Origin: Conexibacter sp.
Lineage (GTDB): Bacteria > Actinomycetota > Thermoleophilia > Solirubrobacterales > Solirubrobacteraceae
Assembly: GCA_025964325.1 (NCBI GenBank)
Contig: JAOPZA010000208.1
Span: forward strand, 1-33,020
Length of the DNA stretch: 33,020 nucleotides
Reading direction: 5' to 3'
Shown here: positions 12,188-27,906 of the stretch, one piece after another
Layout: the number at the start of each line of letters is the position of its first letter
How positions within the stretch are numbered: the first letter of the stretch is position 1
Notes under the pieces: generated by a model
Told to the model about the DNA's origin: nothing
Database searches by the model: none
The model's input: only the letters and a program-made list of their open reading frames with translations
Position numbers and translations under genes: made by a program

Positions 12188-13753
12188 CTACCTCCGATGG
12201 CGCGGCTTTCCGGGAAGCTTGAAGTGGATGTCCTCTTGCGTCACTTCGCGCTCGCTGACGTTGACGCCGCCGAGGCCGTCGAGCGCGGAGATGACCTCCT
12301 GCACCAGCGACTCGGGCGCGGAGGCGCCGGCCGTGAGGCCGACGCGCCGCGCCCCGATCAGCAGATCGGGCGGGATGTCGCTCGCGTCCTCGACGAGGCG
12401 CGCGACGCAGCCGGCGCGCTCGGCGACCTCGACGAGCCGGCGCGAGTTCGAGGAGTTCTCCGATCCGACGACGAGGATCACGTCGCAGTCGGTGGCGAGC
12501 GCGCGGACGGCGTCCTGGCGGTTCTGGGTCGCGAAGCAGATGTCGTCGGAGGAGGGACCGCGCAGCGCCGGGTAGCGCTCGCGCAGCGCGTCCACGAGGC
12601 CGGCCGTCTCGTCGACCGCGAGCGTCGTCTGCGTCAGGTACGCGACGCGCTCGGGATCCGCGATCTCGAGCTGGTCGATCTCGTCGCTGCTCGCGATCAC
12701 CTGCATGCTCGCCGGCGCCTCGCCGACGGTGCCCTCGACCTCCTCGTGCTCCTCGTGGCCGATCACGACGATGTCGAAGCCGGCCGAGGCGAAGCGCTTC
12801 GCCTCGCCGTGCACCTTCGCGACGAGCGGGCAGGTCGCGTCCACGACCTCGAGCTTGCGCGCGGCGGCGTCGCTGCGCACCGCGGGCGAGACGCCGTGGG
12901 CGGAGAAGACGACGGTCGCGCCGTCGGGCACCTCGTCCAGCTCCTCGACGAAGATCGCCCCGCGCTCCTGCAGGTCGGCGACGACGCGCGCGTTGTGCAC
13001 GATCTGCTTGCGCACGTAGACCGGTGCGCCGTGCTCCTCGACCGCCTGCTCGACCATCTGCACCGCACGCACGACGCCGGCGCAGGACGCGCGCGGCGCC
13101 GCCAGCACGACCTCGCGCTCGCCGAGCGCGCTGGCCCAGCCCTCCGCCAGCTCGCAGGCGCGCCGCAGCGCGCGGTAGGCGCGCGCCGCGCCCGTCGCCG
13201 TGCGCAGCGGGTGGTGCAGCTCGCGCTCCGCGGTGTCGAGCACGACGCGCAGCGTGACGAGCGTGCGCGTGCGTGCCGTCGGCGCGATCCAGGCCGACTC
13301 CATGTCGACCGCGATCGCGCCCGTCGCGTGGAGCGCCCGCCGCCGATCGCGCACGACGAGGCGCTGGCTGGAGGCGATCGGCCCGACGCGCACGTTGAGG
13401 CCGCCGCGTCGCAGCGCGCCGGCGAGGATGCTCGGATCGGGGCAGGGCGTCGTTCCGGTCGGGCCGCGCAGCTCCGTCGCCAGGATCACGTCGCCGGGCT
13501 CGAGCGAGGGATCGAGCGCGCCGCAGAAGCCGGCGATCACGATCGCGCCGCCGTCGGCGGTGCTCGTCGCGTCGGCCGCGCGCTGGGCGCGGTGCGGCCC
13601 CATGCCGATCCGCAGGACGCGCGCCCATGGCGCCCCGGCGCGCGCCGCGCGCGCCTCGAGCGCGAGCGGGGCGAGGACGAGGACATCGGGCATGGCGAGC
13701 TGTCCGTCCGCCGCGGCGTGTTCCTCGGTCACCGGCTGTGGAATCGTCGTCAT
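12188..13753 (-). CDS. HpnG-like nucleoside phosphorylase fused to IspH
   Basis: This 521-residue protein joins two enzymes. Residues about 21-205 form a purine-nucleoside-phosphorylase-type domain (MPDVLVLAPLALEARA, IVIAGFCGALDPSLEPGDVI, AIAVDMESAW) matching HpnG, which removes adenine from adenosylhopane. Residues about 213-521 are a full IspH/LytB, the [4Fe-4S] reductase that makes IPP and DMAPP from HMBPP. Its cluster cysteines are Cys224 (CAGVVRAV), Cys308 (DATCPLV) and Cys406 (CFATQNRQ). The family motifs SAHGVSP, GHEEHEEVEG and ENSSNSRRL are also present. There is no stop, frame change or internal ribosome site between the halves. ATG 13753 overlaps the hpnE stop by four bases (ATGA). 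The internal Met21 lacks a ribosome site. Confidence 0.9.
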   Translation of the reverse strand: MTTIPQPVTEEHAAADGQLAMPDVLVLAPLALEARAARAGAPWARVLRIGMGPHRAQRAADATSTADGGAIVIAGFCGALDPSLEPGDVILATELRGPTGTTPCPDPSILAGALRRGGLNVRVGPIASSQRLVVRDRRRALHATGAIAVDMESAWIAPTARTRTLVTLRVVLDTAERELHHPLRTATGAARAYRALRRACELAEGWASALGEREVVLAAPRASCAGVVRAVQMVEQAVEEHGAPVYVRKQIVHNARVVADLQERGAIFVEELDEVPDGATVVFSAHGVSPAVRSDAAARKLEVVDATCPLVAKVHGEAKRFASAGFDIVVIGHEEHEEVEGTVGEAPASMQVIASSDEIDQLEIADPERVAYLTQTTLAVDETAGLVDALRERYPALRGPSSDDICFATQNRQDAVRALATDCDVILVVGSENSSNSRRLVEVAERAGCVARLVEDASDIPPDLLIGARRVGLTAGASAPESLVQEVISALDGLGGVNVSEREVTQEDIHFKLPGKPRHRR

Positions 13754-15108
13754 GCTGTCACCGCTGCCCGTTGGGATCCGTGCGGAACCGCCGCGAGTGC
13801 CACGCCGGCAGCCGTCTGGCCGCTCCGCACGGCTCCCTCCATCGTCGCCGGCCAGGCCGTATCTGTCCAGCTTCCCGCCAGGACGACGCTCGGCAGCCCC
13901 GTCCGCGGGCCCGGTCGCAGTGCGCGCGCGCCGGGCGCTGCGCGGAACGTGGCGGCGTGCTCGCGGGTGACGAAGCAGCGCTCGACGCGCGCCCCACGCG
14001 CCGCCGGCAGCAGCGCGGCGAGCGCGGTCAGATAGTGCTCGCGCAGCGTGTCGGGGTCCATCGACTGCTCGTCGTCGGCGGCCGAGACGGAGACCGCCAC
14101 GTACTGGCCGCCGGCCACGCCCGCCGGGCTGCCGCGGTCGAACAGCCACTGGACGGGCGTGTCGACGCCGGCCGCGAACGGCGTCTCGAGCACGCGCCGG
14201 TCGTAGACGACGTGGACGTTGACGATCGGCGAGCTGCCGAGCCGTTCGAGCTGGGTCGGGTCGACCGCCGCCTCCGGCGGCAGCAGCGCGGCGGCGCGCC
14301 CGTGCGGAACGGCCACGACGACGGCGTCGGCGTCGACCGGTCCCTCGCCGCCCTCGATCCTGCATGCGCCGCCGGCACGGGGGACCACGCGCTCGGCGCG
14401 CCAGCGCAGGCGCACGTCGACGCCGGCCCGTGCCAGCGTCCGTCGTGCCGGCTCGTCGTGCAGCTGGGAGAGCGGGACGCGCGCGTACCCGATGTCGCCG
14501 GCACCGGCGTCGTGCAGCAGCCCCACCTGGAAGACCTGGGCGACCTGCGCGAGCGAGGCCTGCGCGGGCTCGAGGTTCAGCGTCGGCAGGACGATCAGGC
14601 GCCAGATCGCCTGGATCTCGGCCTCGCCCTGACGCTGCTCGTCGAGCCAGCCGCCGAACGCCCGCGCGTCGTTGGCCGGGTCGTCGGGGTCGACGCCGCG
14701 CAGCGCCAGCATCGCCCGCGCGACGCCCAGCCGCTGGCGCGGCGTCAGCAGCCGGTAGCGCGCGAGCGCGCCGGCCAGGTGCAGCGGCGCGGGCGCGCCG
14801 TTGCGTCGCAGCATCGCGGTGCGTCCGTCCGGACGCAGGACCGGGATCTCGAGCCGCTCCTGCAGCACGACGTCGTGCTCCGCGCCGAGGCGCGCCAGCA
14901 GCGAGCGGTACTCCGTGCAGCAGCGCAGGAAGACGTGCTGGCCGTTGTCGACCGCGAGCCCCTCGCGCTCGAACGAGTACGCGGCGCCGCCGAGGCGCGG
15001 CCGCACCTCCAGCAGCGTCACGGCCGCGCCGGCGTCGGCGCAGTCGAGCGCGGCGGCGATGCCGGCGAGGCCGCCGCCGACGATCGCGATGCGCGGTCGG
15101 CCGGTCAC
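13750..15108 (-). CDS. hpnE: hydroxysqualene dehydroxylase HpnE
   Basis: The 452-residue flavoprotein begins with an FAD-binding dinucleotide fold (IAIVGGGLAGIAAALDCADAG, residues about 7-27) and the second signature LEVRPRLGGAAYSFE, both typical of amine oxidase/phytoene desaturase-like proteins. DNGQHVFLRCCTEY follows at about residue 54, a segment typical of HpnE. HpnE reduces hydroxysqualene to squalene as the last step of the HpnC/HpnD/HpnE route. The GTG start has GGGGAGG seven bases upstream. A perfect 6-bp hairpin, GCTCGC and GCGAGC, occupies 15123-15140 in the 55-bp gap after hpnD, right before that ribosome site. Confidence 0.92.
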   Translation of the reverse strand: MTGRPRIAIVGGGLAGIAAALDCADAGAAVTLLEVRPRLGGAAYSFEREGLAVDNGQHVFLRCCTEYRSLLARLGAEHDVVLQERLEIPVLRPDGRTAMLRRNGAPAPLHLAGALARYRLLTPRQRLGVARAMLALRGVDPDDPANDARAFGGWLDEQRQGEAEIQAIWRLIVLPTLNLEPAQASLAQVAQVFQVGLLHDAGAGDIGYARVPLSQLHDEPARRTLARAGVDVRLRWRAERVVPRAGGACRIEGGEGPVDADAVVVAVPHGRAAALLPPEAAVDPTQLERLGSSPIVNVHVVYDRRVLETPFAAGVDTPVQWLFDRGSPAGVAGGQYVAVSVSAADDEQSMDPDTLREHYLTALAALLPAARGARVERCFVTREHAATFRAAPGARALRPGPRTGLPSVVLAGSWTDTAWPATMEGAVRSGQTAAGVALAAVPHGSQRAAVTA

Positions 15109-15163: not shown

Positions 15164-16045
15164 TCACTGGCCGCCGACTCCCGCGAGGCTGCGAACCGCG
15201 AGGGCGGCCTTCTCCCAGATCGGCAGCGAGATGCGATGCCGCGTCAGCTCGAGCGGATCCTCCTCGATGCGGTCGAGGATGCGGCGGTAGATGCCGGTCA
15301 TCGCGAGCACGCACGCGGCGCTGCGCCGGTCGAGCAGCGGCAGCAGCCGCAGGCCGCGCGCGAACCACTCGCGGTTGCGCGCCGCCTCGAAGCGGATCAG
15401 CTGCTCGAGCGCGGCCGGGGGAGCGCCGAGCGGCTCGTCCCCGCAGCCGAAGCGGACGAGGTCCTCCTGCGGCAGGTAGAGGCGGCCGTTCTCGTGGTCC
15501 TCGCGGACGTCGCGCAGGATGTTCGTGAGCTGCATCGCGACCCCGAGCTCGTCGGCGTGGACGAGCGCGGCGGGGAGGTCGCGCGCGCCGAAGATCGCGA
15601 CGCAGAGCCGCCCGATCGAGCCCGCGACGCGCTCGCAGTAGAGGACCAGGTCGTCGAAGGTCGCGAAGCGATCGCCGCGCACGTCCTGCTCGACGCCGTC
15701 GATCAGCGCGTCGAACGCGTCGAGCGGCAGGTCGAAGCGGGCGGATGCGTCGGCGAGCGCGACGATGACGGCGTCGTCGCCGGGGATCCCGCTGCGCAGT
15801 CGCGCGATGCCGTCGCGCTCGCGCGCCAGCAGCGCGACCTTCTCGGCCGTCGGCAGCGAGCCGTCGCCGATGTCGTCGACGCGCCGCGCGAACGCGTACA
15901 CGGCGCTCATCGCGCGCCGCTTCTCCGACGGCAGCAGGCGGATGCCGTAGTAGAAGTTCGCCGCCTCGCGTCGCGTCGTCTGCTCGCAGTCGCGGTAGGC
16001 GTCCGCGACCGCCTCCGCGACCGGTGGGGTGGGGAGGGCGGTCAT
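15164..16045 (-). CDS. hpnD: presqualene diphosphate synthase HpnD
   Basis: The 293-residue protein is a head-to-head prenyl synthase of the squalene/phytoene synthase family. CEQTTRREAANFYYGIRLLP near the N terminus is the HpnD-type opening. The two Asp-rich metal-binding motifs are RRVDDIGDG (about residue 50) and NILRDVREDHENGRLYLP (about residue 170). HpnD condenses two farnesyl diphosphates into presqualene diphosphate. The ATG at 16045 overlaps the hpnC stop (ATGA), with GGAGGG seven bases upstream. HpnC and HpnD are paralogues; I separate them by their N-terminal segments. Confidence 0.9.
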   Translation of the reverse strand: MTALPTPPVAEAVADAYRDCEQTTRREAANFYYGIRLLPSEKRRAMSAVYAFARRVDDIGDGSLPTAEKVALLARERDGIARLRSGIPGDDAVIVALADASARFDLPLDAFDALIDGVEQDVRGDRFATFDDLVLYCERVAGSIGRLCVAIFGARDLPAALVHADELGVAMQLTNILRDVREDHENGRLYLPQEDLVRFGCGDEPLGAPPAALEQLIRFEAARNREWFARGLRLLPLLDRRSAACVLAMTGIYRRILDRIEEDPLELTRHRISLPIWEKAALAVRSLAGVGGQ

Positions 16046-16911
16046 CGGGCGCCCTCCGCCAGCACGCGCGCCCACTCGGCGGCGAACGCCCGCCGGGTCG
16101 GCCGCGGCCGCTCGCCGAGCACGTCGTAGCCAGCCCGCTCGAGCGCGCCGAGCGCCGCGCGACCGCCGGCGACGAACGCGGCGACCGTCACGCGTGCGCG
16201 CAGCGGCAGGCGCCGCACGAGCGGGGCGCCGTCGCGCAGCAGCCCGCGCGCGCGGGCCGTCTCGGTCGCCATCACGGCGCGGAAGGCGGGACTCGGCGTC
16301 GAGGCGAGCAGATCGCCGTCGCCGCAGCCGGCACGCGCGAGATCTTCCTGCGGCAGGTAGACGCGGCCGCCGGCCCGGTCCTCGGCGACGTCCTGCAGGT
16401 GCTCGGTCACCTGGAGGCCGGCGCAGACGCGGTCCGAGAGCTGGATCCGGTCCTCCGTCGCGAGCCCGAAGACGCGCAGCACCAGCTCGCCGATCGGCGC
16501 CGCCGACAGGCGGCAGTAGTCGAGCAGCTCGTCGAAGGTCTCGTAGCGGACCTTGCGCTGGTCCTGCCGGTTGGCCGCGACGAGGCGGGCGAGCGGCGCG
16601 CGCGGGATCGCGCAGGCCCGCACGGTCGGCACGAGACGCTGCATCAGCGGATGCTCGGGATCGCCGCTGCCGTAGACGCGGTCGAGCTCGCCCTCGACCC
16701 AGTCGAGCAGCGCGAGGCGCTGCGCGGGCGCGCCCTCGTCGCCGATGTCGTCGACGAGTCGCGCGTAGCCGTAGATCGCGAGCAGGTGGCCACGCTGGCG
16801 GCGCGGGAGCACGCGGCTCGCGACCGGGAAGTTCTCGGTCCCCGCCTGCGCCATGACGGCAGCGGGCGTCGGCGGCGTGGCCCCGGATCGCTCCGTCGCG
16901 GTCGCCGTCAT
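16042..16911 (-). CDS. hpnC: hydroxysqualene synthase HpnC
   Basis: The 289-residue protein is the second squalene/phytoene synthase paralogue. The N-terminal segment GTENFPVASRVLPRRQR is characteristic of HpnC, which converts presqualene diphosphate to hydroxysqualene. The metal-binding motifs are ARLVDDIGDEG (about residue 55) and EHLQDVAEDRAGGRVYLP (about residue 180). The ATG at 16911 overlaps the end of the cyclase gene by four bases and has GAGGG close upstream. The end overlaps hpnD in the same way, so cyclase, hpnC and hpnD form one translationally coupled block. Confidence 0.9.
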   Translation of the reverse strand: MTATATERSGATPPTPAAVMAQAGTENFPVASRVLPRRQRGHLLAIYGYARLVDDIGDEGAPAQRLALLDWVEGELDRVYGSGDPEHPLMQRLVPTVRACAIPRAPLARLVAANRQDQRKVRYETFDELLDYCRLSAAPIGELVLRVFGLATEDRIQLSDRVCAGLQVTEHLQDVAEDRAGGRVYLPQEDLARAGCGDGDLLASTPSPAFRAVMATETARARGLLRDGAPLVRRLPLRARVTVAAFVAGGRAALGALERAGYDVLGERPRPTRRAFAAEWARVLAEGAR

Positions 16912-21261: not shown

Positions 21262-22560
21262 TCAGACGATCAGACCGGCTCCGACGGTGTCGTTCGACGC
21301 CTCGTCGATCAGGATGAAGCTGCCGGTGTCGCGGTTGCGCTCGTAGGGGTCGAACGCGAGCGGCGCGCTCAGGCGCAGCTTCACGTGGCCGATCTCGTTG
21401 AGCGCCAGCTCGGGCGCGTCGGGGTCGCGCCCGAGCGTCTCGACGTCGAGCTTCCAGTCGATCCCGTCCACGACCGCGCGCACCGCACGGGCGGCGTGCT
21501 TGATCGCGTATCTGGCGCGCGGGCGCAGTGGCGCGTCCGCCATCCAGCAGACGACGGCCTCCAGCTCGCGCGCGACCGTCGGCGCGTCGGAGGGCCGTGC
21601 GATCAGGTCGCCGCGCGAGACGTCGACGTCGTCCTCCAGCCGGACCGTCACCGACTGCGGCGGGAACGCCTCCGCGAGCGAGCCCTCGAACGACTCGATC
21701 GACGCGATCCGCGAGGTGCGGCCGGACGGCAGGACGACGACCTCCTCGCCCGGCACCAGCACGCCGCCGGCGACCTGGCCGGCGTAGCCGCGGTAGTCGT
21801 GGTGCTCGTCGTCGCGCGGGCGCACGACCCACTGGACCGGGAAGCGCCAGTCGTCGAAGTTGCGGTCGCCGGCGATCTCAACCGTCTCGAGATGGTCGAG
21901 CAGCGCCGGGCCGTCGTACCACGGCATCCGCTCGGAGAGGTCGACGACGTTGTCGCCCTTCAGCGCCGAGACCGGGATGAAGCTGACGTCCTCGAAGCCG
22001 GCGATCCCGTCCGACCAGCTCCGGAAGTCGGCGACGATGCGGTCGAAGGTGGCCTGGTCGAAGTCGACGAGGTCCATCTTGTTGACGGCGACGACGAGGT
22101 GCGGCGTGCGCAGGAGCGCGGAGATCGCGGCGTGGCGACGCGACTGCCGCACGAGGCCGTTGCGGGCGTCGACGAGCACGAGCGCGAGGTCGGCGGTCGA
22201 GGCGCCCGTCACCATGTTGCGCGTGTACTGCTCGTGCCCGGGGCAGTCGGCGATGATGAAGCGCCGGCGGTCGGTCTGGAAGGAGCGGTAGGCGACGTCG
22301 ATCGTGATGCCCTGCTCGCGCTCGGCGCGCAGGCCGTCGGTCAGCAGCGCGAGGTTGAGCTCGCCGTCGCCGCGACGCTCGCTCGTCTCCTTCACCGCCG
22401 CCAGCTGGTCGGCGAGGATCGACTTGGCGTCGTGCAGCAGACGGCCGATCAGCGTGCTCTTGCCGTCGTCGACCGAGCCGGCCGTCGCGAAGCGCAGCAG
22501 CTCGGTCGTGCCGCCGCGCGAACGCTCGGGGCGTCCGTTGGTTTCGATCGTGGCCGTCAT
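21262..22560 (-). CDS. cysN: sulfate adenylyltransferase subunit 1 (GTPase), CysN
   Basis: The 432-residue protein is an EF-Tu-like GTPase: G1 GSVDDGKST (residues 28-36), DCPGHEQY (G3) and NKMD (G4), followed by two beta-barrel domains. With CysD it makes APS from sulfate and ATP, driven by GTP hydrolysis. It ends without a CysC APS-kinase domain, so APS, not PAPS, is the likely product used. The ATG at 22560 has GGGAGG eight bases upstream. Part of that site is paired with the sequence directly after the cysD stop codon. Confidence 0.95.
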   Translation of the reverse strand: MTATIETNGRPERSRGGTTELLRFATAGSVDDGKSTLIGRLLHDAKSILADQLAAVKETSERRGDGELNLALLTDGLRAEREQGITIDVAYRSFQTDRRRFIIADCPGHEQYTRNMVTGASTADLALVLVDARNGLVRQSRRHAAISALLRTPHLVVAVNKMDLVDFDQATFDRIVADFRSWSDGIAGFEDVSFIPVSALKGDNVVDLSERMPWYDGPALLDHLETVEIAGDRNFDDWRFPVQWVVRPRDDEHHDYRGYAGQVAGGVLVPGEEVVVLPSGRTSRIASIESFEGSLAEAFPPQSVTVRLEDDVDVSRGDLIARPSDAPTVARELEAVVCWMADAPLRPRARYAIKHAARAVRAVVDGIDWKLDVETLGRDPDAPELALNEIGHVKLRLSAPLAFDPYERNRDTGSFILIDEASNDTVGAGLIV

Positions 22561-22561
22561 G

Positions 22562-22614
22562 GGTGATTCCTCCCGAACGGCGTAGCAGTATGGGGAGCAG
22601 TGGCAGGAATCACC
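22562..22614 (-). promoter_or_regulatory. long-range stem between the cysD stop codon and the cysN ribosome site
   Basis: GGTGATTCCT on the mRNA starts at the last base of the cysD UAG. It is perfectly complementary, over 10 bases, to AGGAATCACC, which covers the 3' part of the cysN ribosome site (GGGAGG at 22569-22574) and its spacer. The arms are 22605-22614 and 22562-22571, with 33 bases between. A ribosome finishing cysD would melt the stem, giving translational coupling. No U-tract follows, so a terminator is unlikely. Confidence 0.65.
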
Positions 22615-23519
22615 TAGAAATATCCCTCTCGCTTGCGGTCCTCCATCGCGGCCTCCGTCACGCGGTCGTCCGCGCGCGTCTGGCCGCGCTCGGTGATGTC
22701 GGTCGCGGCGATCTCCGCGACGACGTCCTCGAGCGTGATCGCCGTCGACGGGACGGCCCCGGTGCAGGTCATGTCGCCCACGGTGCGGTAGCGCACCGAG
22801 GTCGTGAACGGCTCCTCGTCGTCGAGCAGCTCGACGAAGTCGCTGGTCGCGTAGAGCATCCCGTCGCGCGCGAAGACCTCGCGCTCGTGCGCGTAGTAGA
22901 TCGGCGGCAGCTCGAGCCGCTCGCGGGCGATGTACTGCCAGACGTCGAGCTCGGTCCAGTTCGAGATCGGGAAGACGCGCACGTGCTCGCCTCTGCGCAC
23001 GCGACCGTTGTAGAGCGACCACAGCTCGGGGCGCTGGGCCTTCGGATCCCACTGCCCGAAGTCGTCGCGGAACGAGAAGATGCGCTCCTTCGCGCGGGCG
23101 CGCTCCTCGTCGCGGCGGGCGCCGCCGAACGCGGCGTCGAAGCCGTGGGTCTCGATCGCGTCGAGCAGCGTCGTCGTCTGCAGGCGGTTGCGCGAGGCGC
23201 GCGGACCGGTCTCCTCGACCGCGCGGCCCTGGTCGATCGACTCCTGCACGGAGGCGACGATCAGGCGCTCGCCGATCGCCGCGATGCTGCGGTCGCGGTA
23301 CTCGATCACCTCGGGGAAGTTGTGGCCCGTGTCGACGTGCATCACCGGGAACGGGAACCTCGCCGGGCGGAACGCCTTCTCGGCCAGCCGCAGCAGCACG
23401 ATCGAGTCCTTGCCGCCCGAGAACAGCAGGACCGGACGCTCGAGCTCGGCGGCGACCTCGCGCATGATGTGCATCGCCTCGGCCTCGAGCGCGTCGAGGT
23501 GTGAGAGCTCGTGGGTCAT
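22614..23519 (-). CDS. cysD: sulfate adenylyltransferase subunit 2, CysD
   Basis: The 301-residue protein is an ATP pyrophosphatase-type adenylyltransferase with the PP-loop SGGKDS (residues 34-39). The conserved segments MHVDTGHNFPEVIEYRD and AFGGARRDEERARAKER follow. The C terminus (EAAMEDRKREGYF) is typical of CysD. It activates sulfate to APS with CysN. The ATG at 23519 overlaps the stop of the upstream transporter gene by four bases (ATGA) and has GGAG five bases upstream. cysN follows after 53 bases that hold a regulatory stem. Confidence 0.95.
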   Translation of the reverse strand: MTHELSHLDALEAEAMHIMREVAAELERPVLLFSGGKDSIVLLRLAEKAFRPARFPFPVMHVDTGHNFPEVIEYRDRSIAAIGERLIVASVQESIDQGRAVEETGPRASRNRLQTTTLLDAIETHGFDAAFGGARRDEERARAKERIFSFRDDFGQWDPKAQRPELWSLYNGRVRRGEHVRVFPISNWTELDVWQYIARERLELPPIYYAHEREVFARDGMLYATSDFVELLDDEEPFTTSVRYRTVGDMTCTGAVPSTAITLEDVVAEIAATDITERGQTRADDRVTEAAMEDRKREGYF

Positions 23520-24424
23520 GAGGGCTCCGTCGCAAGTGGAGGCGCGCCGACGCGTGCGCGCGCCCGGATGAAGTGGAGCGCGATCGCCGCGACGGCGACC
23601 ACAGCCGGTGCAAGGAAGATGACATACACCGGAAACCCGACGCCGGCCTTGTTCAGCAGCGCCAGCCCGGCGGCGAGCAGCACGATCCCGAGCGCCGGCC
23701 GCAGCGCGTTCTCGGGCAGCCGCTGCGCCAGCTCCGTGCCGACCCAGACGCCCGGGAGCGAGCCGATCAGGATGTTGCCGGCGAGCAGCAGGTCGACGTT
23801 GCCGCTGACGAGGTGGGCGATCGAGGCGACCCACAGCAGCAGCGCGGCGTGGAAGACGTCGGTGCCGACGACGCGACGCGGCGAGAGGCGGTAGACGGTG
23901 ATCAGCCCGACCGCGATCAGCGCGCCGCTGCCGGCCGAGGTGAGGCCGAGCACGAAGCCGACGGAGACGCCGATCACGACCGCGGCGATCTTGTGCCGCA
24001 GTCTGAAGTCGACGTGGTCGCGCTCGTTGGCGCCTGCGAAGGCGAGCGCCCGCGCCAGCACCGCGACGCCCGTCAGCAGCAGCGCGCCGGCGACGAGCGA
24101 CAGCAGCAGGTCGTCGAACCTCTTCGCGCCGAAGCTGCTCTCGAGCATGCGCAGGACGACGACGCCGCCGAGCGCGCCGGGGATGCTGCCGACGGCGAGC
24201 CACAGCGCGAGCGTCATGTCGACCGTGCCCTTGCGCCAGTGGCGCCAGCCGCCGAGCGTCTTCGTGACGGCGGCGTAGGCGAGGTCGGTGCCGATCGCGG
24301 TGGTGGGTGCGGTGCCGAACACGAGGATCAGAGCGGGTGTCATGAGGGAGCCGCCGCCGACGCCGGTCGTGCCGACCAGCACGCCCACGCCGAAGCCGAA
24401 GGCGATGATCAGCGGCCAGTCCAT
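23516..24424 (-). CDS. TauE/SafE-family membrane transporter
   Basis: The 302-residue protein has about eight hydrophobic helices and the repeated Gly-rich segments of the TauE/SafE family: LVGTTGVGGGSLMTPALILVFG near the N terminus, and FVLGLTSAGSGALIAVGLI in the second half. Family members move sulfite, sulfoacetate or other small oxyanions, most often as exporters. Its place between cysH and cysD, with only a 4-base gap before it and an ATGA overlap after it, makes a sulfur oxyanion the likely substrate. It could import sulfate or relieve sulfite build-up, and the sequence does not decide. No strong ribosome site precedes the ATG, so it probably relies on cysH translation. Confidence 0.85.
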   Translation of the reverse strand: MDWPLIIAFGFGVGVLVGTTGVGGGSLMTPALILVFGTAPTTAIGTDLAYAAVTKTLGGWRHWRKGTVDMTLALWLAVGSIPGALGGVVVLRMLESSFGAKRFDDLLLSLVAGALLLTGVAVLARALAFAGANERDHVDFRLRHKIAAVVIGVSVGFVLGLTSAGSGALIAVGLITVYRLSPRRVVGTDVFHAALLLWVASIAHLVSGNVDLLLAGNILIGSLPGVWVGTELAQRLPENALRPALGIVLLAAGLALLNKAGVGFPVYVIFLAPAVVAVAAIALHFIRARARVGAPPLATEPS

Positions 24425-24428
24425 CAGG

Positions 24429-25118
24429 TCAGCCGTGCAGCCCGCACTCGAGCTTGCCGCTGCCGGCCCAGCGGCCGCTGCGGTCGGCGGCCGGGACGGT
24501 GCAGTGGGTGCAGCCGATCGACGCATACCCGTGGTCGTGGAGCGGGTTGTACGGCAGGCCGTTCTCGTGGATGTAGCGCCAGACGTCCTTCTCGCTCCAG
24601 TCGGCGAGCGGCGCGGCCTTCCAGATCCGGTGCTTCGCGTCCCAGTCGATCTTCCGCGTCGTGGCGCGCGTCGGCGCCTGGTCGCGGCGGACGCCGGTCA
24701 GCCAGCCGTCGACCTGGCCGAGCGCCTCGTCGAGCGGGCCGACCTTGCGGATCGCGCAGCAGGCGTCGGGGTCGCGCTCCCACAGCTTGTCGCCGTGCTC
24801 GGCGGCCTGCTGCGCCAGCGTCATGCCGCTGAACGACTCGATCCGGATCCCCCAGTGCGCTTCCATCGCCTTCCACGTCTCGTACGTCTCGGGGAAGAGG
24901 ACGCTCGTGTCCAACGTGAAGATGCGCGCCTTCGGCTCGACTCTGACGAGGAGGTCGATCAGCACCGACTCCTCCTGCTGGAAGGAGCACGCGAGCAGCA
25001 GCCGCGGGTGGAAGCGATCCACCATCCGCGCGATCACGCCTGCGGCGTCGAGCTGCTCAGCGCCGTCGGTCAGCGTTGCGTCGAACGTGTCGTCGGTCGG
25101 GGCTGCCGTGCTCGTCAT
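24429..25118 (-). CDS. cysH: APS reductase, iron-sulfur type CysH
   Basis: The 229-residue protein is a phosphoadenylyl/adenylyl-sulfate reductase. It has the four-cysteine cluster signature of APS-using enzymes: Cys120-Cys121 (DACCAIRK) and Cys203-Cys206 (GCTHC). The catalytic cysteine near the C terminus is in ECGLH (Cys225). It reduces APS to sulfite with thioredoxin. This fits the presence of CysDN without CysC. It is the first gene of the cysH-tauE-cysD-cysN block. GGAG stands eight bases before the ATG at 25118. Confidence 0.94.
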   Translation of the reverse strand: MTSTAAPTDDTFDATLTDGAEQLDAAGVIARMVDRFHPRLLLACSFQQEESVLIDLLVRVEPKARIFTLDTSVLFPETYETWKAMEAHWGIRIESFSGMTLAQQAAEHGDKLWERDPDACCAIRKVGPLDEALGQVDGWLTGVRRDQAPTRATTRKIDWDAKHRIWKAAPLADWSEKDVWRYIHENGLPYNPLHDHGYASIGCTHCTVPAADRSGRWAGSGKLECGLHG

Positions 25119-25205
25119 GTCGATCGCTCCACGTGTCGCTTCCTGGGATCGTCCTGGTCAGCGGGCCAATGAAAATAGCAAAAGCCGATCGCAATTCGGA
25201 TCTTT
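25119..25205 (-). promoter_or_regulatory. AT-rich promoter region before cysH
   Basis: An unusually AT-rich patch (around 25165-25205) stands upstream of cysH, including TATTTT on the minus strand and a short dyad, CCGA and TCGG, separated by 7 bases. This is the likely promoter/operator of the cysH-cysN block. I could not fix exact -35 and -10 hexamers. Confidence 0.4.
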
Positions 25206-25850
25206 CTAGCTGGCGTCGTGGATCAGCTGTGGGAGAGCGGACATCTCGTCGAAGACGACGGCCCCCTCGCGGGCCAGCAGCTCGGCCGGCGTGCGCTCCG
25301 CGTAGCCGAGGACCGTCATGCCGGCAGCGACGCCCGCTCGCACGCCCGCCGGGCTGTCCTCGACGACGACGGTGCGCGCCGCCTCGAAGCCCATCTGCTG
25401 GGCGGCGTGGAGGAAGAGGTCGGGCGCCGGCTTGCCGTGCTCGACGTCGGCGGCGCTGAAGATCTGCGCGTCCTCGAAGTAGGCGAGCAGGCCGGCGACG
25501 GCGAGCCCGTGCCGGATCCGCTCGTGGCTGCCGCTCGAGGCGACGCAGCGTGGCAGCCCGAGCTGGTCGAGCGCGGCGGCGATCCCGAGCACCGGCTCGA
25601 GCTCGGCCTCGAAGCGCGCGAACAGCCGCTCGCGGTAGCGCGCGTGCAGGTCCGCCGGCGGCGCCTCGCCGAGCCGCTCCGTCACGACCGTCACCGCGTG
25701 CTCCCACGAGCGCCCGAGGAACGCCTCGACCGACTGCTCCGGCGTCATCGCGAGCCCGATCTCCGTCAGCACCCCCGCGAGCGTGGCGTTGGAGATCGGC
25801 TCGGAGTCCACGAGAACGCCGTCGCAGTCGAAGATGACGCTGGCGATCAA
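25206..25850 (-). CDS. HAD-IA family phosphatase/phosphomutase-like protein
   Basis: The 214-residue protein is a HAD subfamily IA enzyme with all four motifs intact: FDCDGVLVDSE (Asp8 nucleophile, Asp10), CVASSGS (motif II Ser), GKPAPDLF (motif III Lys) and VVVEDSPAGVRAG (motif IV Asp). A helical cap spans about residues 15-80. Beta-phosphoglucomutase, phosphoglycolate phosphatase or sugar phosphatase roles are all possible. It lies between the sulfite reductase gene and cysH on the same strand, with 142 and 87 bases around it, so a sulfur role is only suggested by place. The start is TTG at 25850 without a ribosome site. No better start precedes motif I. Confidence 0.85.
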   Translation of the reverse strand: MIASVIFDCDGVLVDSEPISNATLAGVLTEIGLAMTPEQSVEAFLGRSWEHAVTVVTERLGEAPPADLHARYRERLFARFEAELEPVLGIAAALDQLGLPRCVASSGSHERIRHGLAVAGLLAYFEDAQIFSAADVEHGKPAPDLFLHAAQQMGFEAARTVVVEDSPAGVRAGVAAGMTVLGYAERTPAELLAREGAVVFDEMSALPQLIHDAS

Positions 25851-25870
25851 GCCGGGCGGGGGGCTGCGGG

Positions 25871-25999
25871 GTTTGAGCGCCGGATCGGGTTCGCTGGCGA
25901 GGACGCAGGGAGCGTGGTGGGCGCCACCCCACGAGCCGGCACCGCCGGCGAAGCCGGTGGTGAGGACATGGCCAGCGGGCCCGAGACGCCGCTCAAACC
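25871..25999. repeat. 129-bp intergenic element bounded by 10-bp inverted repeats
   Basis: GGTTTGAGCG (25871-25880) and CGCTCAAACC (25990-25999) are perfect inverted repeats. The right one contains the sulfite reductase stop codon. Between them lies a further hairpin at 25940-25962. No flanking target duplication was seen. It could be a terminator structure or a small palindromic repeat element. Confidence 0.5.
25940..25962 (-). terminator. hairpin after the sulfite reductase gene
   Basis: CACCGCCGGC (25940-25949) pairs with GCCGGTGGTG (25953-25962), 10 bp with one wobble pair, around GAA. It lies 31 bases past the sulfite reductase stop and would separate it from the HAD gene. Confidence 0.55.
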
Positions 26000-27822
26000 G
26001 CGCACTCTCCTTCGCCGCGGACCACCTCGAAGGGGATGTCCTTCGACCAGTCCATGAACAGGTTCATGTTCTCGAGGTTGAACTCGGCCGGCAGCGCGAG
26101 GTCGCGCACGAGATCCTCGAAGGCGGTCGTGCCGACCCGCTCGGCGAAGGCGTTGAACTCCTCGCCGGGCTGCCGGTCGCTCTCGTAGAAGCGGATCCAG
26201 CGCTCGACCGCCTCCGGCACGCGCTTGGACGGGAGGCGCAGTCTGAGGCGTGCGCCGTAGCCGACCTTGCCGGTGTCGTAGGTGCCGCCGATGTGCGGGA
26301 TCGAGGCTGGGATCGTCTTGTCGCCGACTCTGATCGAGGCGCCGTAGAAGCCGATGTTCGCGATGTGGTGCTGGCTGCAGCCGTTCGGGCAGCCGGACAT
26401 TCTGATGTGGATCCGCTTCGTCAGCTCGTCCTCGATCTGCATCGCCTCGAGCCGCTCCGTGACGGCGCGGTTGAGGCCCATCGAGCTGGTGATGCCGAGT
26501 CTGCAGGAGTCCGTCCCCGGGCACGAGACGACGTCCATGATCTCGTCGACGCCGTCGCCGCCGAGCTCGAGCTCCTGCAGGCGCGTCCAGACGTCGTAGA
26601 CCGACTCGTCGCGGACCCAGCGCAGCACGAGGTTCTGGTGCACGGTCGTGCGGGCGTAGCCGGCCGTGAAGTCGCGCATGATCTGCCCGAGGCCGCGGAA
26701 CTGCTCGGGCGTCAGGTCGCCGCGCGTGATCTTCACCTGGACGGCCGAGAAGCCCTCCTGGCGCTGCGCTCTGACGTTCGATCTGCGGAAGCGCTCGAAC
26801 GCCGACAGGTCGCCGTTGGGCGAGCCGTAGCTCGCCGGCGGCGCCGGCGCATAGGTCTCCTCGTCGTGCACGAACAGCAGCGGCGTGGGGTCGAAGTCGC
26901 GCTCGGCGACCCAGTCGCCCTTCAGCTCCTCCTCGACCTGGGCGCGCAGCTCGTCGATCCCGAATCTGTCGACGAAGACCTTGATGCGCGCGCGGGCGCG
27001 GTTCTTGCGCAGCCAGTCCTGGCGGTCGAAGATGCGGAAGACGGCCTCGGCGACCTTCAGGTACTCGCCGTCGTCGGCGCGCACGAACTCGTACAGCGTC
27101 GGCGCGATCCGCGGCATGATCGAGGTGCCGCCGCCGACGCGCATCTCGAAGCCCTCGACGCCGTCGCGGATGCGGCTGATGTAGGCGATGTCGTGGATGC
27201 CGGTGATCGCACGGTCGGCGTCGGAGCCGGTGAACGCGGTCTTGATCTTGCGCGGCATCATCTGCGTCGTCGGGTGGCGCACGAAGTAGCGCACGTATGC
27301 GCCGGCCCAGGCGGTCGGGTCGAACGTCTCGTCGTCGCAGACGCCGGCCCACGGGTCGGCGGTCACGTTGCGCACCGTGTTGCCGCAGCCCTCGCGGCTC
27401 GAGAGGCCGACCGAGCTGATCTCGCGGATCAGCTTCGTCATGCGGTCGAGCGGGACGTGGTGCAGCTGGACGTTCTGGCGCGTCGTGACGTGGCCTCTGC
27501 GCAGCGGCGCGTAGGTCTCGGCGATGTGGCCGAACATGTCCATCTGCTCAGGGTTGATGCCGCCCCACGGGAGCTTCACGCGGACCATCTGGACGTTCGG
27601 CTGGCGCTGGCCGTAGACGCCCTGCCGGAGGCGGAATCTGATGAACTCGTCCTCCGGCGTGCCGCCCTCGAGGAACTGCGCGGCTTCGTTGTCGAAGTCG
27701 TCGAACTCGCGCTCGAGGATCGGGATCACGTGCCCCGGTACGTCCTGGACGATCTCGGGGTTGTCGATCGAGCCCGGCTTGCCGGACGTCTTTCTCTTCT
27801 CGTGAACCGAGCTGGGCTCCAT
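25993..27822 (-). CDS. sir: ferredoxin-type sulfite reductase (siroheme, NirA/SirA family)
   Basis: The 609-residue protein has the duplicated ferredoxin-like and siroheme domains of assimilatory sulfite/nitrite reductases. The four cysteines holding the [4Fe-4S]-siroheme centre are Cys434 and Cys440 (CPGTDSC) and Cys478 and Cys482 (CPNGC). RRGHVTTRQNVQLHH contributes siroheme contacts. Tyr70 (GVYGQRQ) and Cys146 (EGCGNT) might be the Tyr-Cys pair described in M. tuberculosis SirA/NirA, which is inference. The neighbouring cysDNH genes favour sulfite over nitrite as substrate. The ATG at 27822 has AGGAGGA eleven bases upstream. A TTG at 27867 would add 15 residues but places that ribosome site inside the gene. 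Confidence 0.93.
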   Translation of the reverse strand: MEPSSVHEKRKTSGKPGSIDNPEIVQDVPGHVIPILEREFDDFDNEAAQFLEGGTPEDEFIRFRLRQGVYGQRQPNVQMVRVKLPWGGINPEQMDMFGHIAETYAPLRRGHVTTRQNVQLHHVPLDRMTKLIREISSVGLSSREGCGNTVRNVTADPWAGVCDDETFDPTAWAGAYVRYFVRHPTTQMMPRKIKTAFTGSDADRAITGIHDIAYISRIRDGVEGFEMRVGGGTSIMPRIAPTLYEFVRADDGEYLKVAEAVFRIFDRQDWLRKNRARARIKVFVDRFGIDELRAQVEEELKGDWVAERDFDPTPLLFVHDEETYAPAPPASYGSPNGDLSAFERFRRSNVRAQRQEGFSAVQVKITRGDLTPEQFRGLGQIMRDFTAGYARTTVHQNLVLRWVRDESVYDVWTRLQELELGGDGVDEIMDVVSCPGTDSCRLGITSSMGLNRAVTERLEAMQIEDELTKRIHIRMSGCPNGCSQHHIANIGFYGASIRVGDKTIPASIPHIGGTYDTGKVGYGARLRLRLPSKRVPEAVERWIRFYESDRQPGEEFNAFAERVGTTAFEDLVRDLALPAEFNLENMNLFMDWSKDIPFEVVRGEGECAV

Positions 27823-27906
27823 GCGCTTGAGTTCCTCCTGTGCCGGGCGGGTTCCGAAAGGTATCAAACCCGGGGGTGTTTTCGGGGTTTAGGACGCGGG
27901 CGCGCG
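27823..27906 (-). promoter_or_regulatory. leader of the sulfite reductase gene
   Basis: This 84-bp gap contains, on the minus strand, an inverted repeat (AAACCC and GGGTTT) with an A-rich centre, then GGTTTGATACC, itself partly symmetric, which could be a -10/operator region. AGGAGGA is the ribosome site. The dyad may be the rhodanese terminator or a sulfur-responsive operator; neither can be shown. Confidence 0.35.

What the first reader, a model, noticed from the sequence alone, without database searches (positions are those of the whole stretch)
12188..13753. HpnG-like phosphorylase and IspH encoded as one polypeptide inside a hopanoid operon
Seen: one open frame joins a nucleoside phosphorylase domain (DMES motif near residue 150) to a complete IspH with all three cluster cysteines (224, 308, 406), with no stop, frame change or internal ribosome site at the joint near residue 210. 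Known: HpnG and IspH are normally separate proteins, though actinobacterial hopanoid clusters can contain MEP-pathway genes. Inferred: the fusion ties C5 precursor supply to side-chain processing of adenosylhopane, or simply fixes their ratio. If this is the only IspH of the genome, an essential enzyme depends on a hopanoid operon.
Basis: partly seen in the sequence, partly recalled or inferred. Interest (0 to 1): 0.75.

Follow-up and report, generated by a model that had tools for sequence, protein, structure and literature searches.

The report
HpnG–IspH fusion in hopanoid operon
A soil actinobacterium makes one protein that joins an enzyme finishing the isoprenoid building-block pathway (IspH) to an enzyme that trims the side chain of hopanoids (bacterial sterol-like lipids); the fusion is real, old and shared by many actinobacteria, and it is a spare, hopanoid-dedicated IspH rather than the cell's only one.

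Summary
Window 12188-13753 (-) is one 521-codon frame: a nucleoside-phosphorylase domain (DMES at 150-153) followed by a complete IspH (cluster Cys 224/308/406), inside an SHC-HpnC-D-E-[fusion]-HpnH-HpnO-like operon. It is neither unique nor the only IspH: a stand-alone IspH lies on contig C205 and groups with genus-mates. The same fusion occurs in Thermoleophilia and in isolates of Frankia/Parafrankia, Amycolatopsis, Microtetraspora, Actinomadura, Plantactinospora and others, in hopanoid clusters; 26 of 27 fusion genomes tested have two or more IspH. All fused IspH domains form one clade (99). Both active sites are conserved and both halves are under purifying selection. Elsewhere the halves decay independently, so the join is separable. 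Best reading: a hopanoid-dedicated second HMBPP reductase made at a fixed ratio with the adenosylhopane phosphorylase, not a channelling machine. Prior art: Rao et al. 2015 (PMC4746011) listed a phosphorylase-IspH from Frankia as possibly random; its HpnG identity, hopanoid context and breadth appear unreported in what I could search. A side branch of this IspH sits in encapsulin operons.

The parts
12188..13753 (-). Fused gene: HpnG-like nucleoside phosphorylase + IspH (521 aa)
   Evidence: one open frame; two Pfam domains; homologous fusions in many genomes
13145..13690 (-). HpnG-like phosphorylase domain (residues about 22-203), active-site motif DMES at residues 150-153
   Evidence: PF01048 1.6e-14; TIGR03468 90 bits, below cut-off; MTAN/PNP fold; motif conservation
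12203..13117 (-). IspH domain (residues about 213-517), cluster cysteines 224, 308, 406 and the catalytic His/Glu/Thr/Ser/Asn set
   Evidence: PF02401 2.7e-92; TIGR00216 313 bits; residues conserved; Foldseek to E. coli IspH 9ql0, TM 0.90 of target, 51% identity
16908..18842 (-). squalene-hopene cyclase, first hopanoid gene upstream of the fusion
   Evidence: TIGR01507 752.6 bits, over cut-off
16042..16908 (-). HpnC squalene synthase (start not fixed; the match lies in the C-terminal part of an 883-codon open frame)
   Evidence: TIGR03464 303 bits
15164..16075 (-). HpnD presqualene diphosphate synthase
   Evidence: TIGR03465 294 bits, over cut-off
13750..15108 (-). HpnE hydroxysqualene dehydroxylase, overlaps the fusion's start codon by 4 nt
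   Evidence: TIGR03467 418.8 bits
11179..12183 (-). HpnH adenosylhopane synthase (radical SAM), starts 4 nt after the fusion
   Evidence: TIGR03470 536.7 bits
9762..11162 (-). class-III aminotransferase, HpnO-like by position
   Evidence: aminotransferase models; homologues beside HpnH in other hopanoid loci at 49-72% identity

Best explanation
The gene makes one bifunctional protein. Its C-terminal half is a genuine IspH (HMBPP to IPP/DMAPP), a second, hopanoid-dedicated copy beside the housekeeping IspH. Its N-terminal half is the actinobacterial form of HpnG, which removes adenine from the adenosylhopane made by the neighbouring HpnH. Joining them in the operon makes the last, oxygen-sensitive iron-sulphur step of C5 supply appear with, and in fixed ratio to, a side-chain enzyme whenever hopanoids are made. 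Shown here: single frame, operon, both active sites, one origin, a second IspH in nearly all carriers, purifying selection on both halves, and independent decay of either half in some lineages. Inferred: the two catalytic activities, production of the full-length protein, and that the benefit is co-expression and dosage rather than substrate channelling (the two substrates lie at opposite ends of the pathway).
For: Domains and intact residues; operon and synteny with SHC/HpnH in essentially all fused loci; fused IspHs are one clade apart from the stand-alone IspHs (SH-aLRT 99); 26 of 27 fusion genomes tested carry another IspH, while the Streptomyces and Nocardia genomes without the fusion carry one; genus-mates G002, G004 and G006 lack both a hopene cyclase over cut-off and the fusion, G000 and G001 have both; 15 of 32 Streptomyces hopanoid loci with unfused HpnG carry IspG and/or Dxs, 1 of 39 fusion loci does (counted; one genus, so not independent); dN below dS for both halves; the IspH half was redeployed in MEP/encapsulin operons without HpnG function, and in Amycolatopsis thermalba the only two IspHs found belong to this clade.
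Against: No activity, expression or proteomic data. The HpnG half scores half of TIGR03468's cut-off. The Streptomyces IspG/Dxs contrast is confounded by phylogeny. Most hopanoid producers manage without the fusion, and Solirubrobacteraceae relatives of genus code g15 have HpnG without a second IspH. Fusion and co-transcription are partly redundant as ratio devices.
Confidence: 0.7

Rival explanations
1. The fusion is a neutral accident: read-through of two adjacent operon genes fixed once and was inherited; it has no benefit beyond what co-transcription would give.
For: The halves decay independently: Nocardia L133 keeps HpnG with an IspH remnant lacking the cysteines; G040/L089 and Amycolatopsis/Prauserella copies keep IspH with a decayed HpnG. 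Rao et al. 2015 allowed that the Frankia case may be random (PMC4746011).
Against: The single frame persists across two classes with both halves conserved, and no case of adjacent but separate hpnG and ispH of this clade was seen.
Confidence: 0.25
2. The IspH half has a different job in the side chain, for example an iron-sulphur reduction acting on a hopanoid intermediate or passing electrons to HpnH; the reductase that turns ribosylhopane into bacteriohopanetetrol is still unknown (PMC12583986).
For: Position between HpnE/SHC and HpnH; an unassigned reductive step exists in the pathway; carriers already own an IspH.
Against: Every HMBPP-binding and cluster residue checked is kept in all or nearly all of 60 fused proteins; the same clade is used in MEP/encapsulin operons, in G627 without any hopene cyclase, and seems to be the only IspH of A. 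thermalba; Streptomyces and Saccharopolyspora hopanoid clusters lack this IspH.
Confidence: 0.1
3. Two separate proteins are made, by internal initiation or proteolysis, so the fusion is only nominal.
For: An in-frame GTG lies eight codons before C224 in the window.
Against: No Shine-Dalgarno-like motif there; 11 of 59 fused genes lack any start in the stretch and only 5 have a start with an SD-like motif; the join is a continuous predicted helix plus short linker.
Confidence: 0.08
4. The N-terminal half is a non-catalytic docking or stabilising domain in this organism.
For: Degenerate N-termini exist in relatives (G040 DTGS with lost Asp, G001 DREP).
Against: In the window all motif residues are intact, no other HpnG was found in the genome, and dN is below dS. 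Degeneration in G012 and G040 coincides with a second, intact HpnG.
Confidence: 0.06

Closest known systems
'UDP/PNP phosphorylase-IspH' of Frankia sp. QA3, EUN1f and EAN1pec (Rao et al. 2015, PMC4746011)
   Same: Same architecture; Parafrankia sp. EUN1f locus L094 is in the same IspH clade.
   Different: There reported from one genus, not recognised as HpnG, no hopanoid context given in the text found, thought possibly random; here shown across Thermoleophilia and several Actinomycetes orders, in hopanoid operons, with one origin.
IspH-RPS1 and IspH-UbiA fusions (same paper)
   Same: IspH joined to a second domain, called Rosetta-stone proteins.
   Different: Different partner domains; there the extra domain is S1 repeats or a prenyltransferase, here a phosphorylase N-terminal to IspH.
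HpnG (TIGR03468), hopanoid-associated phosphorylase
   Same: PNP fold, DMES motif, beside HpnH/SHC.
   Different: Below the curated cut-off (90 vs 187 bits); fused to IspH.
Streptomyces hopanoid cluster (SHC-HpnG-HpnH with IspG/Dxs)
   Same: Hopanoid cluster carrying extra MEP-pathway genes.
   Different: HpnG unfused; IspG and Dxs in place of IspH.

Membership tests
IspH / LytB (TIGR00216) | Score over the curated cut-off | tested here: met
   313.4 vs 187.85 bits
IspH / LytB (TIGR00216) | Three [4Fe-4S] cysteines and the HMBPP-binding His/Glu/Thr/Ser/Asn set | tested here: met
   C224, C308, C406 and the 10 other positions checked all present in the window; conserved in 60 fused proteins, with one Ser to Ala at S226 in 4 of them
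IspH / LytB (TIGR00216) | IspH fold | tested here: met
   Foldseek TM 0.90-0.92 (target) to E. coli IspH
IspH / LytB (TIGR00216) | HMBPP reductase activity | not testable with these tools
   needs assay
HpnG (TIGR03468) | Score over the curated cut-off | tested here: not met
   90.4 vs 187.1 bits
HpnG (TIGR03468) | PNP/MTAN fold and DMES-type active site with upstream Glu and downstream Asp | tested here: met
HpnG (TIGR03468) | Genomic linkage to SHC/HpnH | tested here: met
HpnG (TIGR03468) | Release of adenine from adenosylhopane | not testable with these tools
   needs substrate and assay
IspH fusion (Rosetta-stone) proteins | Both domains in one frame, recurrent in independent genomes | tested here: met
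   67 HpnG hits run on into IspH in one frame, 59 distinct proteins once repeats and one chimeric contig are removed
IspH fusion (Rosetta-stone) proteins | Full-length protein made in cells | not testable with these tools
   needs proteomics or immunoblot

The most novel reading that the evidence does not exclude
An ancient HpnG-IspH fusion founded a lineage of dedicated second IspHs in actinobacteria: it supplies C5 units to hopanoids, and one branch moved into Family 2B encapsulin terpenoid operons, where the decayed HpnG domain became an N-terminal region that may load IspH into the nanocompartment, shielding an oxygen-sensitive iron-sulphur enzyme.
Probability: 0.2. Interest if true: 0.7.

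Novelty: new member of a known kind. Interest (0 to 1): 0.42.

Why it matters
It turns a one-genus curiosity into a widespread, single-origin arrangement and gives a clear hypothesis: some actinobacteria keep a separate terminal MEP enzyme for hopanoids. That matters for hopanoid biomarker interpretation (fused HpnG falls far below the standard HpnG model, so HpnG surveys by cut-off can miss it, and IspH annotation hides it), for MEP-pathway drug targeting (carriers have two IspHs), and for engineering, since it marks where nature coupled precursor supply to a triterpenoid pathway.

Tried and rejected
Only-IspH hypothesis: rejected by the second IspH on C205, which groups with genus-mates and so is not a foreign contig. 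Assembly artefact: rejected by single-contig and isolate genomes; one MAG contig (L080) does look like a chimera at the conserved start of ispH and was left out. Frameshift in G023: it is a run of N, not biology. Curated HpnG membership: not met. HpnG tree: too poorly resolved to say whether Streptomyces, Saccharopolyspora and g15 HpnGs are ancestral or split off; only Nocardia is clearly a decayed fusion. Phylum-wide even sample of 396 genomes found only three intact fusions: the fusion is scattered, not general. Papers: no description of HpnG-IspH in a hopanoid operon was found, but most subscription papers are not held.

Full report
WHAT IS THERE. The minus-strand frame 12188-13753 encodes 521 residues without interruption. 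Residues 46-203 match PNP_UDP_1 and 215-491 match LYTB. The best named models are IspH (TIGR00216, 313 bits, over cut-off) and, more weakly, HpnG (TIGR03468, 90 bits, under its cut-off of 187). The gene lies in a tight same-strand run: SHC, HpnC, HpnD, HpnE, fusion, HpnH, class-III aminotransferase. HpnE overlaps the fusion start by 4 nt and HpnH begins 4 nt after its stop, so co-transcription is likely (inference from spacing). The AlphaFold model (pLDDT 89, pTM 0.84) has two folded domains, a long helix 182-208 and a short linker; Foldseek matches E. coli IspH (TM 0.90 of target) and MTA/SAH nucleosidases (TM about 0.65 of target).

NOT THE ONLY IspH. The window's genome (4.34 Mb, 251 contigs, 96.65% complete, 3.85% contamination) has a second IspH at C205:13383-14207. 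In the IspH tree it falls with the IspHs of genus-mates G002 and G006, so it belongs to this lineage. Across 27 fusion-bearing genomes searched for PF02401, 26 have two or more copies; the exception, G341, is 68% complete.

NOT UNIQUE. Among 41 close relatives 8 carry the fusion, in one of which an N-gap interrupts it. In 399 genomes of the class 74 have an HpnG-like match, and the best of them are mostly fused, including three single-contig genomes. A scan of named genomes brought fused forms from Microtetraspora, Thermomonospora, Actinomadura, Nonomuraea, Amycolatopsis, Prauserella, Pseudonocardia, Actinopolymorpha, Plantactinospora, Frankia, Parafrankia and Pseudofrankia; Streptomyces, Saccharopolyspora and Nocardia have HpnG without an intact IspH partner. 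In an even sample of 396 genomes of the phylum only three intact fusions appear, so the trait is scattered. Fused IspH domains form one clade against the stand-alone IspHs (SH-aLRT 99): one origin of the fused IspH, by descent or transfer.

BOTH HALVES LOOK ACTIVE. All 13 IspH positions checked (cluster cysteines and substrate-binding residues, E. coli numbering) are present in the window and conserved in 60 fused proteins apart from S226A in four. In the HpnG half the upstream Glu, DMES and the downstream Asp are intact in the window and in most fused copies. dN is below dS for both halves in eleven pairs, though dS over long distances is only approximate. A short stretch of a near relative (start of L080) differs from the window at 14 of 65 codons in the HpnG half, all synonymous.

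THE HALVES ARE SEPARABLE. In G012 and G040, which own a second, intact HpnG beside HpnH, the fused HpnG has a changed motif (DTES; DTGS with Asp to Arg). In Nocardia wallacei HpnG continues into an IspH remnant without cysteines that still matches the IspH profile. In Amycolatopsis and Prauserella a second copy has IspH with an N-terminus reduced to a weak HpnG remnant (HMM E 1e-5 to 3e-9 at Z=1000). Decay of either half without the other argues against an obligate channelling complex and for two useful activities that happen to be co-made.

WHY IspH HERE. Established knowledge: IspH performs the last MEP step and, with IspG, is an oxygen-sensitive iron-sulphur bottleneck (PMC13001223). HpnH adds the 5'-deoxyadenosyl group to diploptene and HpnG is thought to remove adenine to give ribosylhopane (PMC12583986). 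Each hopanoid needs six C5 units. Streptomyces hopanoid loci often carry IspG and/or Dxs (15 of 32 loci), fusion loci almost never do (1 of 39) (counted). This fits the idea that actinobacterial hopanoid clusters tend to bring their own MEP enzymes, but one genus supplies one side of the contrast. Within the window's genus, carriers have a hopene cyclase and non-carriers tested do not.

COMPARISON WITH THE LITERATURE. Rao et al. 2015 (PMC4746011) listed five further IspH fusion types, among them 'UDP/PNP phosphorylase' from three Frankia strains, as possibly random. I found no paper that identifies the partner as HpnG or ties it to hopanoid operons; the library lacks most subscription papers, so this is absence in what could be searched. 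One paper's remark that hpnH clusters with shc and ispH in subdivision-1 Acidobacteria (PMC5462960) conflicts with its own description of that cluster (ispA) and was not followed up.

SIDE BRANCH. IspHs of this clade lie in Family 2B encapsulin operons of Amycolatopsis thermalba (with IspG), A. bartoniae, A. taiwanensis, Prauserella flavalba (with a polyprenyl-transferase cargo protein) and genome G627, whose operon also has a terpene-cyclase-like frame and a methyltransferase-like frame by inspection. They form one clade (99/96) nested among the fused IspHs. Four carry an N-terminal FTAAQSI motif and a GxxGLGxA motif resembling the cargo motif GPTGLGT reported for this encapsulin family (PMC8346489); none of 111 intact HpnG domains has it. 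That the remnant loads IspH into the shell is a guess worth a test.

VERDICT. A true, conserved, under-described fusion; most likely a hopanoid-dedicated second IspH tied to HpnG for co-production. The claim of an only IspH is wrong, the uniqueness is much smaller than it looked, and the fusion type was already on record for Frankia.

Noticed in passing
L193 6476-7783, L194 6304-7713, L195 7053-8342, L197 6629-7882, L201 6917-7822: IspH copies of the fused clade inside Family 2B encapsulin operons, with decayed or lost HpnG N-termini; four share FTAAQSI and GxxGLGxA motifs, the latter resembling a reported encapsulin cargo motif.
   Followed up: partly
L197 6629-7882: The A. taiwanensis encapsulin-linked IspH has altered active-site motifs (for example GHAGNEEVDG and GSKSSPNA), so it may be inactive.
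   Followed up: no
L080 1-1140: MAG contig (Frankiaceae BP_193) whose first part matches the window's fusion and whose IspH then diverges: a likely assembly chimera at the conserved start of ispH.
   Followed up: yes
L193 / genome G413 (Amycolatopsis thermalba): Only two IspHs found, both of the fused clade; the housekeeping IspH seems replaced or is missing from the draft.
   Followed up: partly
L133 10480-10980: Nocardia wallacei HpnG with a cysteine-less IspH remnant as its C-terminal tail.
   Followed up: yes
L037 8881-10236: In genus-mate G001 the fusion is not next to other hopanoid genes within 18 kb and its HpnG half is degraded (DREP); the genome has a hopene cyclase on another contig.
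   Followed up: partly
L202 7351-11006: An IspH of this type followed by Dxs and IspG in G633: an accessory MEP operon without HpnG and outside the hopanoid cluster.
   Followed up: no
L198 1790-7136: Saccharopolyspora kobensis: a second, unfused IspH in a locus with an encapsulin-like shell gene; its tree place is unsure.
   Followed up: no
window 21262-27867 (-): By reading the translations, a sulphate-assimilation set (CysN/CysD-like, CysH-like, a sulphite/nitrite-reductase-like protein, a TauE-like permease) upstream of the hopanoid operon.
   Followed up: no
PDB 9ql0: The top structural match is E. coli IspH crystallised with adenosine hemisulphate; a curiosity given that the fusion partner is an adenosine-type phosphorylase, with no evidence of relevance.
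   Followed up: no
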